Source: Trichocoleus sp.
GTDB taxonomy: Bacteria; Cyanobacteriota; Cyanobacteriia; Elainellales; Elainellaceae
Length of the DNA: 64,000 nt
NCBI GenBank assembly: GCA_036702865.1
Contig: DATNQD010000042.1
Coordinates: forward strand, 124,001 to 188,000
Direction: 5' to 3'
This document shows, piece by piece, positions 9,459 to 34,263 of the stretch. Every line of letters starts with the position of its first letter. The first letter of the stretch is position 1. The notes beneath the pieces were generated by a model, which was not told the origin of the DNA, made no database searches, and saw nothing but the letters and a program-made list of their open reading frames with translations. Made by a program: the position numbers and the translations under genes.

Positions 9459-11090
9459 ATGAGCAAAAGACTTGAAGAATTTATCGACTGGCTGCAACGA
9501 GAAAAGCGACCGATCGATCGGGCTTGGAGCATCATTTTTCTAGTGGCAGCGCTTGTCTTATTTACGTTTAATTTGAATGGGCTACCATTACGTGATTGGG
9601 ATGAGGGGCTGGTCGCACAGGTGGCGCGGGAAATTTGGCAGGCTCCTTTTGACTCCTTGACCTGGCTTTATCCGACCCTCTGGGGTGAACCCTATCTCAA
9701 CAAACCTCCTTTAATACACGGGTTGATTGCCTTGAGCTATGCGATCGGGGGTGTCAATGAGTGGACGGCTCGGTTTCCAGGCGCGCTGCTAACTGCCATT
9801 TCTGTGCCCTTGTTCTACAGCATGAGCCGCGAAGTTTTCTACCGTCGAACTCCTGCGGTTTTTGCCACGCTGGTTTATCTGACCTCCCTGCCTGTTTTGC
9901 GGAATGGACGGCTTGCCATGCTCGATGGCGCTCTGCTTTGCTTTGCAGTGCTGATGATGCTGTGTCTGCTGCGATCGCGGCGTGATTTGCGCTATATGCT
10001 TGGTGTGGGAATTGGGCTGGGATTGATCTGCTTAACCAAAGGCATCATGGTGGGGCTGTTGCTCGGTACGATCGCCCTGCTTTTCCTGGTTGGTGACACT
10101 CCTCGGCTCTTAAAGTCTCCTTATACCTGGATTGGGCTGCTGTTTGGTTGTGTTCCAGTTGCGCTCTGGTATGGGGCACAGTGGGTTCATTATGGACAGG
10201 TGTTTTTAACAAACAATCTGGGGACGCAATCGTTTCAACGAATTTGGGCAGATGTGGAAAATAATCACGGTGCGCCCTGGTACTATCTGCTAGAAGTCCT
10301 CAAGTACGGTGCGCCTTGGGTGCTGTTTCTGCCGTTGGGCTATCGACTGGCGTGGCAAAACCGTAATTTAAGCTGGGCGAAGCTGGCTCTTGTCTGGGGC
10401 GTCGTTTATTTTCTGGCGATTTCGCTGATGGCGACAAAGCTTCCCTGGTATGTCTTGCCGCTCTATCCGGCGCTGGCGCTGGCGATCGGAGCACAGCTTG
10501 CGGAATTCTGGGAGCAGGGCAGGCATATTGGCGTCCTGCAATCTGAGCTATCCCCCTATCCTCGAATCTGGATTAGGCTGTTTGGTTTAATAGCTCTAGT
10601 TGCCTGGAGCGGTGTGCTGTTTTTTGGGCTGCAATATTCGCCTCCCGAAACCGATCTTCAGGCAGTTATGGCAGCCGTCGCCATCACGATGATGGTTGTA
10701 GTCGTTCTGTTAATTCAGCAGAATGCTCAATTCTTGACAGTTTTAGGGTGGGGAACCTATCTCTCGCTGCTGCTATTGATGGGGTCAGACCACTGGGTTT
10801 GGGAACTGGCGGAGGCATATCCCGTGGAACCTGTTGCTGCCCTGATTCGGGGATCTGCACCTGCAAGCCAAAAAATTTATACGTCCTATCCTTACAACCG
10901 CCCCTCTCTGAATTTCTATAGCAATCGCCCTGTTTTACCTGCCGATTTGCAAAACCTGCGGCGTGTCTGGCGTCAAGCATCGAATCCCTATCTCTTGCTG
11001 GATCAAAAAAGCCTTGAGGCGTTGCCACTGAAACGGCAGAAAATTGTGGGGCGGGCAGAGGGCTGGGTACTGGTTACAAAAATCAAGTAA
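9459..11090 (+). CDS. GT39-type membrane glycosyltransferase (ArnT/PMT-like)
   Basis: A 543-residue integral membrane protein of the GT-C fold, which moves sugars from lipid-phosphate donors to lipid or protein acceptors on the outer face of the membrane. After a first membrane segment (IIFLVAALVLFTFNL) the first loop carries LPLRDWDEGLVAQVAREI, the acidic Asp46/Asp48/Glu49 site typical of this group, and NKPPLIHGL follows. Roughly ten further hydrophobic segments precede a soluble C-terminal domain of about 80 residues. Donor and acceptor are not predictable. Confidence 0.88.
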   Translation: MSKRLEEFIDWLQREKRPIDRAWSIIFLVAALVLFTFNLNGLPLRDWDEGLVAQVAREIWQAPFDSLTWLYPTLWGEPYLNKPPLIHGLIALSYAIGGVNEWTARFPGALLTAISVPLFYSMSREVFYRRTPAVFATLVYLTSLPVLRNGRLAMLDGALLCFAVLMMLCLLRSRRDLRYMLGVGIGLGLICLTKGIMVGLLLGTIALLFLVGDTPRLLKSPYTWIGLLFGCVPVALWYGAQWVHYGQVFLTNNLGTQSFQRIWADVENNHGAPWYYLLEVLKYGAPWVLFLPLGYRLAWQNRNLSWAKLALVWGVVYFLAISLMATKLPWYVLPLYPALALAIGAQLAEFWEQGRHIGVLQSELSPYPRIWIRLFGLIALVAWSGVLFFGLQYSPPETDLQAVMAAVAITMMVVVVLLIQQNAQFLTVLGWGTYLSLLLLMGSDHWVWELAEAYPVEPVAALIRGSAPASQKIYTSYPYNRPSLNFYSNRPVLPADLQNLRRVWRQASNPYLLLDQKSLEALPLKRQKIVGRAEGWVLVTKIK

Positions 11091-11104: not shown

Positions 11105-11503
11105 TCAGCGGCTCGATCTGCGTCTGGAGCGATCGGCTTCCCAATCTAAGCAAACTTCCCCTGTCGCACCGTAAGGATGCATCGCACAAACAAACAGATT
11201 GCCGCTATAAACTCGCCCATGATAATGAGTACAGCCCCGACAAGCGATCGGCATCGTTGGCTTTGGGTTCGATCGCTGCTGATTCATCCGGCGCAAGTTC
11301 TCTAAATACGCCTCTGCATGGGCAATCCGGGCTTTCCGCTGCTGTCGTTCCCGTAGAATAATGCGCGTTACGATAAATCCAAACAGTCCAGATCCGACAA
11401 CTGCCCCCACGACTTGAACCACCACATTATTGACTTGGGCTGCGGCACAAATAATTAAACCTGCCCCGATCGCACTTAGCAAAATCTTCCCTAGCATTGC
11501 CAC
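11105..11503 (-). CDS. Small membrane protein with Cys-rich C-terminus
   Basis: A 132-residue protein of unknown function. Two hydrophobic segments (about 5-22 and 27-50) form a membrane hairpin, followed by a very basic stretch and a C-terminal module CRGCTHYHG, then NLFVCAMHPYG and EVCLDWE. Four Cys plus His could bind zinc or an iron-sulfur cluster (inference). I believe the Cys module recurs in other cyanobacterial hypothetical proteins, but I cannot check. It ends 14 bases from the convergent glycosyltransferase gene. Confidence 0.7.
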   Translation of the reverse strand: MAMLGKILLSAIGAGLIICAAAQVNNVVVQVVGAVVGSGLFGFIVTRIILRERQQRKARIAHAEAYLENLRRMNQQRSNPKPTMPIACRGCTHYHGRVYSGNLFVCAMHPYGATGEVCLDWEADRSRRRSSR

Positions 11504-11627
11504 TACAGGGGGAACACAAGATCTCTACTATGCTAGACCAGAAACTTAAGTGTGCCATCGGAATCAGATGAGTAGGAGTTAAGAATTAGGGGAGTAGAGG
11601 TCAGGCAGGAGATCCCTCCACGTCGCT

Positions 11628-12116
11628 TCATCCCTCATTCCATTCTCGAAACGGATGCTTCACTAAGTAGGCATTGAAATAGCGGGGGTCACCTGTCACT
11701 TCCTGCCCTGCCCAGTCGGGGATTCGGACGGGATGGTCGGCTTGGGGAAGTTCAACTTCTGCCATAATCAAGCCCTGATTTTCGCCGCTAAACTCATCCA
11801 CTTCCCAAACGAGATCATCGATCGGGATGCGATGCCGGACTTTTTCAATCAGGGGTCGATCGCACAGAGTATCTAGCATTTCTGTGGCATCTGTAACGGG
11901 AATGCTGTACTCATATTCAGCCCTGCCGATGCCGATCGCGCTGCCCTTAATCGTGATAAAGGCTTTGTCCCCGGCAATCCGGATTCGCACTGTTCTTTCC
12001 TGACTCGCTAAAATATAGCCCTGACGGTACACTGTTCCCAGGACAGAGTTGCCAAGTTCGTCTACGCGCCAACGGTCACTTTGTACTAAAAACTTTCGCT
12101 CAATTTCTAAGCCCAT
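11628..12116 (-). CDS. CYTH-domain protein (triphosphate tunnel metalloenzyme)
   Basis: A 162-residue CYTH enzyme. This family hydrolyses or cyclises triphosphates (inorganic tripolyphosphate, thiamine triphosphate or ATP) inside an eight-strand tunnel using Mg or Mn. The signature E-x-E-x-K is at the very N-terminus (MGLEIERKFLV), followed by tunnel residues in TVRIRIAGDKAFITIKG, EYEYSIPV and VWEVDEF. GGAGG lies just before the ATG at 12116 and decides it over an ATG 30 bases upstream. Bacterial single-domain members are most often tripolyphosphatases; that is an inference here. Confidence 0.9.
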   Translation of the reverse strand: MGLEIERKFLVQSDRWRVDELGNSVLGTVYRQGYILASQERTVRIRIAGDKAFITIKGSAIGIGRAEYEYSIPVTDATEMLDTLCDRPLIEKVRHRIPIDDLVWEVDEFSGENQGLIMAEVELPQADHPVRIPDWAGQEVTGDPRYFNAYLVKHPFREWNEG

Positions 12117-27001: not shown

Positions 27002-27229
27002 ATGGGACGAGCAGGCAAGGCACTCAAACAGGTTTTAGAGAGTTATGGCATCAGCCAAAATCAACTTGCAGTCGCAATGAAGATCGATCGCTCGAATGTG
27101 AGCCGTTGGGTTAAGGAAACAATGGATCCTTCTTCTGAGGCAGTTTATGAAATTAAAAAAGCCCTGGATGCGATCGATCCAGAAGCTTCAGAACGGTTTG
27201 TAATGCTGTATTTGTATGAGGCAGATTAG
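27002..27229 (+). CDS. XRE-type helix-turn-helix protein
   Basis: A 75-residue DNA-binding protein consisting of one Cro/CI-type domain. The HTH is YGISQNQLAVAMKIDRSNVSRWV with recognition helix RSNVSRWVKE. No ligand or sensor domain. It is convergent with the HNH-like gene, 34 bases away, at the edge of the A+T-rich island; it could regulate the island or be an unrelated neighbour. Confidence 0.85.
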   Translation: MGRAGKALKQVLESYGISQNQLAVAMKIDRSNVSRWVKETMDPSSEAVYEIKKALDAIDPEASERFVMLYLYEAD

Positions 27230-27263
27230 GGCGATCGGTTACTTACGACTGCGCTCCCATGCA

Positions 27264-28253
27264 TCAAGCAACCTTACGAAAACCAAACAACTGTTTAACA
27301 CGGTGCAGTTTTTGAAGAAGCTCGTCTAGATTAGGACATTTATCTTCGTCGGAATACTGCTCACTAACAAAACGAATGAACTCATCAACTGTACAAGGTT
27401 TATCAAAGCCACCATTCCAGTGATGAAATTCTTTATGTACATCATTTGTTAACGTAATCAAGTTATCCAAGCTTTCTGATAGATGAGGATACTCTTCCTT
27501 GGAGAAGATATGATGTGCAGCAAGCTCAACTTGATTAGACGGCTTCGGTTTTGAACCAGTAATCTGGCAACACTTATCTCTCTTTTTAGCAGTATTCTTT
27601 GCAGCAGTAATCCGTTTTTCTCTCTGTTCTTCTGCTGAGATGATCTGAGCTAGGGTCTTATTTCCAACGATATGAACTGCTTTACACCACTCACGCCGAT
27701 CTGGCTTCTTCAAATTATTAGAAAGTTCTCTACTTAACTTCTCAATACCTGAGAGTGAGTAAAATCGTTTTCCTTCGATATCAATGAAATGTTTTCCATT
27801 TTCCATTGGATCGCTCTTTTGAATAGTCTCGAATGCCTTATCAAGCCTTGCGTAACTTGTGCATAAAATGTTCACTACATCTTTGCGAGAGAGGAAAGAA
27901 AAGCTATTTCTATGAGTTAGAGAACTACAGTTTTCATAAACTCTTTGTCTAACGAAAGCGTTACGGAGTTTTTCCTTATGTCTAGTAATGAACTCAACAA
28001 GACGCCCCAAAAGAGTTTTTTTCTCAATTGTGTCCATGTACTTTGCAATTGCAAAAGCACCAATTTGTGAGAACAATCGTGTTCCTTTGTTCTTGCTCAG
28101 GAAGATAAAGTGTTCATTCTCAACTAAATCCCACTCATCTTTAGAATCTTTGTCGAAAAATTCAACAATCTCATAGAGACGATCGAGACTAATCTCTAGC
28201 GCCTTTGCTAAATCTTCAGCCTTGATAGTGAACTGCGAAGTGTTCTTAGCCAT
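27264..28253 (-). CDS. HNH-nuclease-like protein with duplicated DNA-binding-like module
   Basis: A 329-residue protein. The C-terminal HNH-like domain reads KRDKCCQITG (Cys228/229), VELAAHHIF (His247/248), NLITLTNDVHKEFHHW (Asn264, His273, His277). It has the two-His, Asn, His order of HNH nucleases and a possible zinc Cys pair, though the second Cys pair is missing. The N-terminal two thirds holds two similar modules (about 12-75 and 123-178), each with helices followed by (E/K)HFI, then RLFSQIGAFAI or RFYSLSGIEKL, resembling wHTH or phage-antirepressor N-domains; this is by eye. It sits 3 bases after the J-domain gene, in A+T-rich DNA unlike its neighbours. Likely horizontally acquired; target unknown. 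Confidence 0.75.
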   Translation of the reverse strand: MAKNTSQFTIKAEDLAKALEISLDRLYEIVEFFDKDSKDEWDLVENEHFIFLSKNKGTRLFSQIGAFAIAKYMDTIEKKTLLGRLVEFITRHKEKLRNAFVRQRVYENCSSLTHRNSFSFLSRKDVVNILCTSYARLDKAFETIQKSDPMENGKHFIDIEGKRFYSLSGIEKLSRELSNNLKKPDRREWCKAVHIVGNKTLAQIISAEEQREKRITAAKNTAKKRDKCCQITGSKPKPSNQVELAAHHIFSKEEYPHLSESLDNLITLTNDVHKEFHHWNGGFDKPCTVDEFIRFVSEQYSDEDKCPNLDELLQKLHRVKQLFGFRKVA

Positions 28254-28256
28254 TTT

Positions 28257-28910
28257 CTAAGCCTCCGCACTGATGCTTTTATACATCGTATTAATTCGGC
28301 TAAAGATCTCAGCATTCCCAGTCTCAGACACATCAGGATGATATATCTTACTCAAGTCACGATATGCCTGTTTAATATCATCAGGTGTTGCAAGTTGGGG
28401 ATCTAAACCAAACACTTTCCAGGGTTTGAAGTAACTAAAGATATTAATGCCATTAATACAGCCATAACCTTGTTGCTCCTCTTCTCCGGGTAAGATGCCA
28501 ACAAATTCTCGATACAGCATTTCCCAGGTTTCTTTAGATGTGAAGTCTAACTTATCCATCCCATCAGTTGCCATTTTGAAAGAACCCGACCGTTTGAGTT
28601 CTGTAGTGTTCTTGACTTCAAAACGCTTGTAGATTGCTTCCTTGATTTTTGTAATCGCTAAGGGTTTAACAACAAGGTTCTTTTTCTTAATCTCTTTTTT
28701 ACTAGGTTCTTTCTTTTTGTAGTTCTCAATAACAAATTGAGCAAAGTTTTCTAGTATAATTACATTGATTCCATGCTCTTTTACGATTTGGGTAATCTCA
28801 TCTTGAACGATCGTATTTAGCTGCTTTGAAGATTTAGAATCTTGTATCTCTCTTGCTTGAACAGAACTCTTTTTAGAAGATGTTTGTTTTGACTTTGTTG
28901 TTGTGACCAT
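28257..28910 (-). CDS. J-domain protein
   Basis: A 217-residue protein with a C-terminal J domain (about 163-215): VFGLDPQLATPDDIKQAYRD, then LSKIYHPDVSETG with HPD at 191-193. J domains stimulate Hsp70 ATPase, so DnaK is the expected partner. The N-terminal 160 residues are Lys/Ser-rich and then contain a block ATDGMDKLDFTSKETWEMLY followed by REFVGILPGEEE that I do not know. There is no Gly/Phe region or zinc-finger domain, so it is not a canonical DnaJ. First gene of a two-gene unit with the HNH-like gene. Confidence 0.85.
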   Translation of the reverse strand: MVTTTKSKQTSSKKSSVQAREIQDSKSSKQLNTIVQDEITQIVKEHGINVIILENFAQFVIENYKKKEPSKKEIKKKNLVVKPLAITKIKEAIYKRFEVKNTTELKRSGSFKMATDGMDKLDFTSKETWEMLYREFVGILPGEEEQQGYGCINGINIFSYFKPWKVFGLDPQLATPDDIKQAYRDLSKIYHPDVSETGNAEIFSRINTMYKSISAEA

Positions 28911-32364: not shown

Positions 32365-34263
32365 ATGGCTAAAGTTGTTGGAATTGACTTAGGGACAACC
32401 AACTCATGTGTGGCAGTGATGGAAGGGGGTAAGCCCACCGTTATTGCGAACGCAGAAGGTTTCCGCACCACTCCCTCGGTTGTTGCCTATACCAAGAATG
32501 GCGATCGACTCGTTGGGCAAATTGCCAAGCGTCAGGCAGTGATGAACCCCGAAAACACCTTTTATTCGGTGAAGCGGTTCATTGGTCGTCGCTTTGATGA
32601 AGTCGGCAACGAAATGACCGAAGTCACATATAAAGTCCTTAACATTAATGGCAACGTTAAGATTGACTCTTCTGCCCAGGGCAAGCAGTTCGCTCCTGAA
32701 GAAATCTCTGCACAAGTGCTGCGGAAGCTGAAAGAAGATGCCAGTAAGTATCTGGGCGAAGACGTAACTCAGGCAGTTATCACGGTTCCCGCATACTTTA
32801 ACGACTCTCAGCGCCAAGCAACGAAAGACGCTGGAAAGATTGCCGGACTTGAAGTTCTACGAATTATTAACGAGCCAACTGCTGCATCACTAGCTTATGG
32901 CTTGGACAAAAAGACGAACGAAACGGTTCTCGTCTTTGACTTAGGCGGTGGTACGTTTGACGTATCCATCCTGGAAGTAGGCGATGGCGTATTTGAAGTG
33001 CGATCGACCTCTGGTGATACCCACCTGGGTGGTGACGACTTCGACAAGAAAATCGTAGACTTCTTGGCAGAAGAGTTCAAGCGCAACGAAGGCATTGAAC
33101 TCCGCAAAGATAAGCAGGCACTACAGCGTCTAACTGAAGCCGCTGAAAAAGCCAAAATCGAACTGTCCAGCGTGACCCAAACCGAGATCAACCTGCCCTT
33201 CATCACGGCAACTCAGGATGGTCCGAAGCACCTGGATGTGACGATGACCCGTGCCAAATTTGAAGAGCTTTGCGCTGATCTAATTGATCGCTGCCGCATC
33301 CCCGTTGAAAATGCGCTGCGGGATGCCAAACTCGACAAGAGCCAGATCGATGAGGTCGTACTGGTTGGTGGTTCCACCCGGATTCCTGCCGTTCAAGAAG
33401 TCGTGAAGCGCGTTCTGGGCAAAGACCCGAACCAGTCTGTTAACCCTGATGAAGTGGTTGCAGTAGGTGCAGCAATTCAGGCAGGTGTCCTGGCAGGCGA
33501 AGTGAAAGATATTCTGCTGCTAGATGTAACACCGCTCTCTTTGGGTGTGGAAACGCTGGGTGGCGTAATGACCCCCATCATCCCTCGCAATACTACGATT
33601 CCCACTAAGAAATCAGAAGTCTTCTCGACTGCTGCTGACGGACAAACCAACGTAGAGATTCACGTCCTGCAAGGCGAACGTCAGATGTCGAATGACAACA
33701 AGAGCCTGGGAACCTTCCGTCTGGATGGCATTCCTCCCGCACCTCGTGGCGTTCCTCAAATTGAAGTGACTTTTGACATCGACGCAAACGGCATCCTCAA
33801 TGTCAGCGCTAAGGACAAGGGAACTGGCAAAGAGCAGTCCATTAGCATTACTGGAGCTTCAACCCTACCTAAGGATGTTGTTGAGCAGATGGTGCGCGAT
33901 GCTGAAGTAAATGCCAACGCAGACCAAGAGCGTCGTGAAAAGATTGACCTGAAGAATCAGGCTGAATCGTTGGCTTATCAAACTGAGAAGCAACTCAAGG
34001 ATCTAGGCGACAAAATCCCTGATGCCGAGAAGACCAAATTGGAAGGCATGGTTGCTGAACTGCGCGAAGCCATCAACAAAGAAGACTACGACAAGATGAA
34101 GACCCTGCCAAATGAAATGCAGCAAGTGCTGTATAACATCAGCAGCAACCTCTATCAAGGTGCAGGTGGTGAGACTCCTCCGACTGGTGATGCGACAGGT
34201 GGTAGTGCGCCTTCCGGCGGCGGTGATGATGTTATTGATGCTGAATTCACCGAAGACAAGTAA
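32365..34263 (+). CDS. dnaK: Molecular chaperone DnaK (Hsp70)
   Basis: Hsp70 chaperone. ATPase domain with [34 protein letters not shown] and [10 protein letters not shown]; the linker [13 protein letters not shown] joins the substrate-binding domain, and the tail ends in [12 protein letters not shown]. 632 residues, like DnaK2-type cyanobacterial proteins, the main housekeeping Hsp70. No grpE or dnaJ beside it. The J-domain protein at 28.3-28.9 kb is a possible partner (inference). Confidence 0.98.

What the first reader, a model, noticed from the sequence alone, without database searches (positions are those of the whole stretch)
27002..28910. A+T-rich island: J-domain protein and HNH-nuclease-like protein as a coupled pair
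Seen: a J-domain gene followed after 3 bases by an HNH-like gene, then a convergent XRE gene. Sampled 60-base lines count 14/60 G+C at 28681 and 22/60 at 27961, against 33/60 at 33001 in dnaK. Known: HNH domains cut nucleic acid, and J domains recruit Hsp70. Inference: the nuclease could be held, loaded or released by Hsp70 through its J-domain partner, as part of a defence or other conflict system. I know of no described system with this pairing.
Basis: partly seen in the sequence, partly recalled or inferred. Interest (0 to 1): 0.65.

Follow-up and report, generated by a model that had tools for sequence, protein, structure and literature searches.

The report
Conserved J-domain and HNH-nuclease gene pair
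Patchily across the cyanobacteria, two neighbouring genes, one that should recruit the cell's Hsp70 chaperone and one that should cut DNA, are inherited together as a compact, A+T-rich, frequently relocating unit, which looks like an undescribed chaperone-linked nuclease system, possibly an anti-virus defence.

Summary
In detail: a J-domain gene (28257-28910, -), 3 bases, an HNH gene (27264-28253, -), and a convergent XRE gene, in an A+T-rich patch (37.3% G+C against 49.0% for the window). In 386 cyanobacterial genomes all 29 with the full-length HNH protein also hold the J protein's own N-terminal domain (32 hold it; about 2.4 shared expected by chance). In 72 of 80 loci from a scan of 84,980 species one J ORF lies directly upstream of one HNH ORF; HPD is kept in 73/73 and the HNH core in nearly every untruncated copy. 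Both genes are under purifying selection, their trees agree, 67 loci have 61 and 65 different neighbours, and the unit is lower in G+C than its flanks in 63 of 67. A second, divergent J+HNH operon exists (L186). The XRE gene is not part of it. I propose a mobile two-gene nuclease system in which a dedicated J protein hands the nuclease, or its trigger, to DnaK.

The parts
28257..28910 (-). J protein, 217 aa: family-specific N-terminal domain plus C-terminal J domain
   Evidence: homologues in 32 of 386 cyanobacterial genomes
28431..28910 (-). N-terminal domain of the J protein (residues 1-160), no known family; core F97, L105, F111, W129, Y133-R134, E143, C-I-N-G-I 151-155
   Evidence: used alone as profile A6
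28266..28421 (-). J domain (residues 164-215)
   Evidence: Pfam DnaJ 4.1e-9
28332..28340 (-). HPD motif (residues 191-193), invariant in 73 of 73 J proteins
27264..28253 (-). HNH protein, 329 aa
   Evidence: full length in 29 of 386 genomes, all of which have the J protein
28023..28235 (-). first copy of a duplicated ~70-aa, HTH-like domain (residues about 7-77)
   Evidence: profile-profile match to the second copy, P=2.4e-6; HTH_17/HTH_31/DUF2316 hits in some members
27711..27902 (-). second copy of the duplicated domain (residues about 118-181)
27423..27569 (-). HNH nuclease domain (residues 229-277): C229, H247, H248, N264, H277 invariant where present, H273 in 64 of 68
28254..28256 (-). 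3-base gap between the two genes; in other loci most often 2, -4 or -1 bases (translational coupling inferred)
27002..27229 (+). convergent XRE gene: neighbour, not part of the system

Best explanation
A compact, horizontally moving two-gene nuclease system of cyanobacteria. The HNH protein is a nucleic-acid endonuclease: two copies of a small HTH-like domain for recognition, a helical linker, and an intact HNH site. The J protein is its dedicated partner: its N-terminal domain, found only with this nuclease apart from a few orphan copies, binds the nuclease or the trigger, and its J domain (HPD kept in every copy) recruits the cell's own DnaK and stimulates its ATPase. DnaK would thereby keep the nuclease soluble and restrained, or load or release it, so that cutting happens only under a cue such as phage infection. 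Shown: the coupling, motif conservation, purifying selection, changing genomic location and foreign composition. Inferred: physical contact, DnaK recruitment, nuclease activity, and the defence role.
For: Co-occurrence: 12 of 60 relatives have HNH and the same 12 have the J N-terminal region, adjacent on the same strand; phylum sample: 29 of 29 HNH genomes have J, 29 of 32 J genomes have full-length HNH. 72 of 80 genome-contig loci have one J ORF directly upstream of one HNH ORF; the other 8 are frameshifted, truncated, at contig ends or lack the HNH ORF. HPD 73/73; HNH core kept in untruncated copies. dN/dS 0.07-0.55 for both genes in 11 close pairs. J and HNH trees share their main clades, identity correlation r=0.88. 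Control: none of 30 other cyanobacterial HNH_2 loci has an adjacent J-domain gene. Second case: L186 carries a J-domain gene 10 bases before an HNH gene, with N-terminal domains that match neither family here. Mobility: 61 and 65 different neighbour families in 67 loci; near-identical units at unrelated sites in Microcystis and others, homology ending just before the promoter and at or within about 40 bases after the HNH stop; three diverged copies in one Prochloron bin; integrase-like, Prim-Pol or tRNA-Pro genes beside it in Prochlorococcus; lower G+C than flanks in 63 of 67, p=9e-12. Precedent: the antiphage protein bNACHT25 needs host DnaJ with intact H33 and D35 (PMC12169576).
Against: No function tested. 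No informative PADLOC or NCBIfam match, and no PDB sequence match, for the HNH protein. Neighbouring defence genes are only weakly enriched: C5 methyltransferase hits in 4 of 128 neighbour proteins against none seen among 132 control proteins, but at least two come from one locus. No copies of the pair in the phage, plasmid or viral-contig collections. Two genomes keep an intact J without HNH, so J may have another role.
Confidence: 0.45

Rival explanations
1. Toxin-antitoxin-like addiction pair: the HNH protein is a toxic nuclease and the J protein, translated first, is the chaperone-type antitoxin that keeps it bound or unfolded with DnaK.
For: J is always the first gene and often translationally coupled; intact HNH is never seen without J in 386 genomes, while intact J without HNH is seen twice, the asymmetry expected of an antitoxin; patchy and relocating.
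Against: Only two orphan J genes; most J remnants decay with the HNH gene. Not found in 72,556 plasmids, where addiction modules often occur. Needing J only for folding would give the same asymmetry.
Confidence: 0.25
2. A selfish mobile gene pair: the HNH enzyme cuts empty sites to spread its own unit, as homing endonucleases do, and J helps it fold.
For: Units of about 1.7-1.9 kb are shared between unrelated sites with sharp ends; the HNH domain is closest to phage HNH endonuclease profiles; no third gene recurs.
Against: Neighbours differ almost everywhere, unlike homing to one site; no consistent terminal repeats seen (one 43-base flanking direct repeat in L091 only); clean empty sites were not obtained.
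Confidence: 0.15
3. A housekeeping or stress-linked DNA repair pair with no conflict role.
For: Both genes under purifying selection; Nodosilinea copies keep their chromosomal place between species.
Against: Present in under 10% of the sampled genomes and 21-24 of 143 genera, G+C-poor, relocating, sometimes decayed.
Confidence: 0.1
4. The two genes are neighbours by chance in an A+T-rich island.
For: None found for the pair; the adjacent XRE gene is such a chance neighbour.
Against: 29 of 29 co-occurrence, 72 of 80 adjacency, 0 of 30 for other HNH_2 loci.
Confidence: 0.01

Closest known systems
bNACHT25 and host DnaJ (E. coli antiphage NLR-like protein, PMC12169576)
   Same: defence effector whose activation needs a J protein with an intact HPD motif
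   Different: There DnaJ is the general host chaperone, not encoded with the effector; the effector is a NACHT protein, not an HNH protein of this kind
GAP1-N2-type conflict systems with HSP70 and DnaJ-domain proteins (PMC7159879)
   Same: predicted conflict systems that include a DnaJ-domain component
   Different: multi-gene GTPase-centred systems with FNIII-repeat and HSP70 genes; the passage read names no HNH partner
Phage HNH endonucleases of phrog_119 / phrog_144 and Pfam HNH_2
   Same: same HNH domain, catalytic residues kept
   Different: the N-terminal duplicated domain is mostly outside the matches and there is no J partner; no phage record holds the pair
Chaperone-assisted toxin-antitoxin systems (SecB-like TAC; own knowledge, not tested)
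   Same: a dedicated chaperone-type gene controlling a toxic partner
   Different: SecB-like chaperone plus separate antitoxin; here a J domain and no third gene

Membership tests
J-domain proteins (DnaJ, PF00226) | J domain with invariant HPD | tested here: met
   Pfam 36.9 bits over cut-off 27.8; HPD 73/73
J-domain proteins (DnaJ, PF00226) | stimulates a DnaK ATPase | not testable with these tools
   needs biochemistry
Class A DnaJ chaperone | N-terminal J domain, G/F region, zinc fingers | tested here: not met
   J domain is C-terminal; only the J domain matches, far below the DnaJ equivalog cut-offs
HNH endonucleases (HNH_2, PF13391) | HH...N...H catalytic core | tested here: met
   24.2 bits over cut-off 21; H247, H248, N264, H277 invariant where present
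HNH endonucleases (HNH_2, PF13391) | cuts nucleic acid | not testable with these tools
   needs biochemistry
Known antiphage defence systems (PADLOC-DB 2.0.0) | proteins match the system's models | tested here: not met
   J protein none; HNH protein only weak matches (REase_II 1.1e-4 over 39 residues, PDC-M62B 0.004); the database is of 2023
Antiphage defence system (functional) | lowers phage plating | not testable with these tools
   no assay possible
Type II restriction-modification | cognate methyltransferase with the nuclease | tested here: not met
   no methyltransferase recurs; found within 8 kb in a few of 80 loci only
Homing endonuclease element | conserved insertion site | tested here: not met
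   61 upstream and 65 downstream neighbour families in 67 loci
Toxin-antitoxin | toxic gene neutralised by its partner | not testable with these tools
   only the gene order and the orphan-J asymmetry fit

The most novel reading that the evidence does not exclude
A guard of protein-folding capacity: DnaK, brought by the dedicated J protein, keeps the HNH nuclease inactive; when an infecting phage ties up DnaK/DnaJ, the nuclease is released and destroys DNA. This would be a self-contained immune system that senses chaperone occupancy.
Probability: 0.15. Interest if true: 0.85.

Novelty: new variant of a known kind. Interest (0 to 1): 0.62.

Why it matters
If true, a nuclease effector comes with its own J protein, so the cell's Hsp70 would be a working part of a defence or conflict system rather than a bystander. 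It would extend the DnaJ dependence reported for bNACHT25 to a genetically encoded, two-gene system that seems confined to one phylum and occurs in well-studied cyanobacteria (Prochlorococcus, Microcystis, Arthrospira), and both key motifs (HPD, HNH) are simple to test.

Tried and rejected
Empty-site tests: in Microcystis and in L091/L093 and L069/L070 no clean empty site was found; two earlier tries failed for lack of a genome handle. XRE as third gene: rejected. Proximity to dnaK: rejected, does not recur. Other HNH-only hits (G387, G106, G362, G219, G172, G129) have no J-domain neighbour and look unrelated. Viral contig scans found no relative apart from one HNH domain without J (L034). The only non-cyanobacterial hit, a Bifidobacterium MAG (L103), branches within the Synechococcus/Cyanobium copies and is taken as mis-binned. 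A PDB sequence search with the HNH profile gave nothing.

Full report
What is there. The window holds, on the minus strand, a 217-aa J-domain protein (28257-28910), a 3-base gap and a 329-aa HNH protein (27264-28253), with a 75-aa XRE gene (27002-27229, +) convergent to them. Pfam gives DnaJ at 4.1e-9 and HNH_2 at 3e-5. The pair is 37.3% G+C against 49.0% for the window, and only 0.24% of windows of its size are as low.

Coupling. Among 60 related genomes the HNH protein occurs in 12, and the J protein's own N-terminal region in the same 12, each time adjacent and on the same strand. In a sample of 386 cyanobacterial genomes, 29 hold the full-length HNH protein and every one holds the J N-terminal domain, which occurs in 32; independence would give about 2.4 shared genomes. 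A scan of 84,980 species with the J alignment returned 96 relatives, of which 80 were kept, all cyanobacterial but for one MAG labelled Bifidobacterium that branches inside the Synechococcus copies. In 72 of the 80 one J ORF lies directly upstream of one HNH ORF, most often with 2, -4 or -1 bases between; the other eight are frameshifted, truncated, at contig ends or lack the HNH ORF. As a control, 30 other HNH_2 loci of the phylum have no J-domain neighbour within the stretch read.

The proteins. HPD is invariant in 73 of 73 J proteins; the HNH core (H247, H248, N264, H277) is invariant in all copies that reach it and H273 is kept in 64 of 68. dN/dS is 0.07-0.55 in both genes across 11 close pairs. 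The two protein trees recover the same main clades, and pairwise identities correlate with r=0.88 (relatedness of the hosts is not removed from this number). The HNH protein's N-terminal half is a duplicated domain of about 70 residues (hhalign P=2.4e-6), with scattered helix-turn-helix hits; its HNH domain is closest to phage HNH profiles. The J protein's N-terminal domain matches no known family; apart from the J domain nothing in NCBIfam or Pfam describes it.

A second case. Genome G133 carries a J-domain gene (L186:3360-4028) followed after 10 bases by an HNH gene (L186:4039-5085). The HNH domain matches our profile (3.4e-16) and the J domain ours (1.2e-5; Pfam DnaJ 0.001, below its cut-off), but the N-terminal domain of the J protein does not match our profile and the HNH protein matches only over its C-terminal third. 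It was the only such pair in the sample.

Mobility. In 67 loci the nearest upstream genes fall in 61 and the nearest downstream in 65 families. Near-identical or similar units of about 1.7-1.9 kb sit at unrelated places in Microcystis and in several other groups; homology starts roughly 60-190 bases before J and stops at the HNH stop codon or within about 40 bases. Microcystis genomes are heavily rearranged, so this alone does not prove self-movement, and clean empty sites were not found. One Prochloron bin has three diverged copies (L050, L071, L077). In Prochlorococcus, copies stand beside tRNA-Pro, an integrase-like gene or Prim-Pol genes. The unit has lower G+C than its flanks in 63 of 67 loci (mean -7.0 points, p=9e-12).

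Defence? Changing location, patchiness, decay, foreign composition and a nuclease fit a conflict system. Direct neighbourhood evidence is weak: C5 methyltransferase hits in 4 of 128 neighbouring proteins from 20 loci and none seen among 132 control proteins, but at least two of the four come from one locus; HsdR lies next but one to a Cyanobium copy and a Schlafen-group helicase near one Synechococcus copy. PADLOC 2.0.0 (2023) has no good model for either protein and the paper searches found no description of the pair; many subscription papers are not in that library. The best precedent is bNACHT25, whose defence needs host DnaJ with intact H33 and D35 (PMC12169576).

Mechanism. I favour a nuclease with a dedicated J-protein adaptor that brings DnaK to it (45%). 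The orphan J genes (L183, L184) and the absence of orphan HNH genes also fit a toxin-antitoxin reading (25%). Which direction DnaK works in, restraint or loading, is not decided by these data.

Limits. Function was not tested. The XRE gene and dnaK look like coincidental neighbours.

Noticed in passing
L186:3360-5085 (genome G133): A divergent J-domain + HNH operon with different N-terminal domains, the only one of its kind in 386 genomes.
   Followed up: partly
L183:3775-4323 and L184:4383-4934: Intact J proteins of this family without any HNH gene or remnant nearby.
   Followed up: partly
L112, L113, L114 (Prochlorococcus): The pair lies beside tRNA-Pro(TGG), an integrase-like gene or Prim-Pol/AAA genes, like cargo of integrative (tycheposon- or satellite-like) elements.
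   Followed up: partly
L091:7797-7839 and 9731-9773: A 43-base imperfect direct repeat flanks the unit in this genome; its close copy L093 has only the left one.
   Followed up: no
L049, L054, L057, L058, L062 upstream of J: A CCACTTGACAAAGTGG-type palindrome overlapping the likely -35 box at the left edge of the Microcystis units; possible operator or element end.
   Followed up: no
window 27002-27229: The XRE gene belongs to a multicopy small HTH family, up to 13 copies in one cyanobacterial genome.
   Followed up: partly
L073:6631-7740 and 11258-11728: A C5 methyltransferase and a partial duplicate of it flank the J-HNH pair, hinting at insertion into or exchange with a restriction locus.
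   Followed up: no
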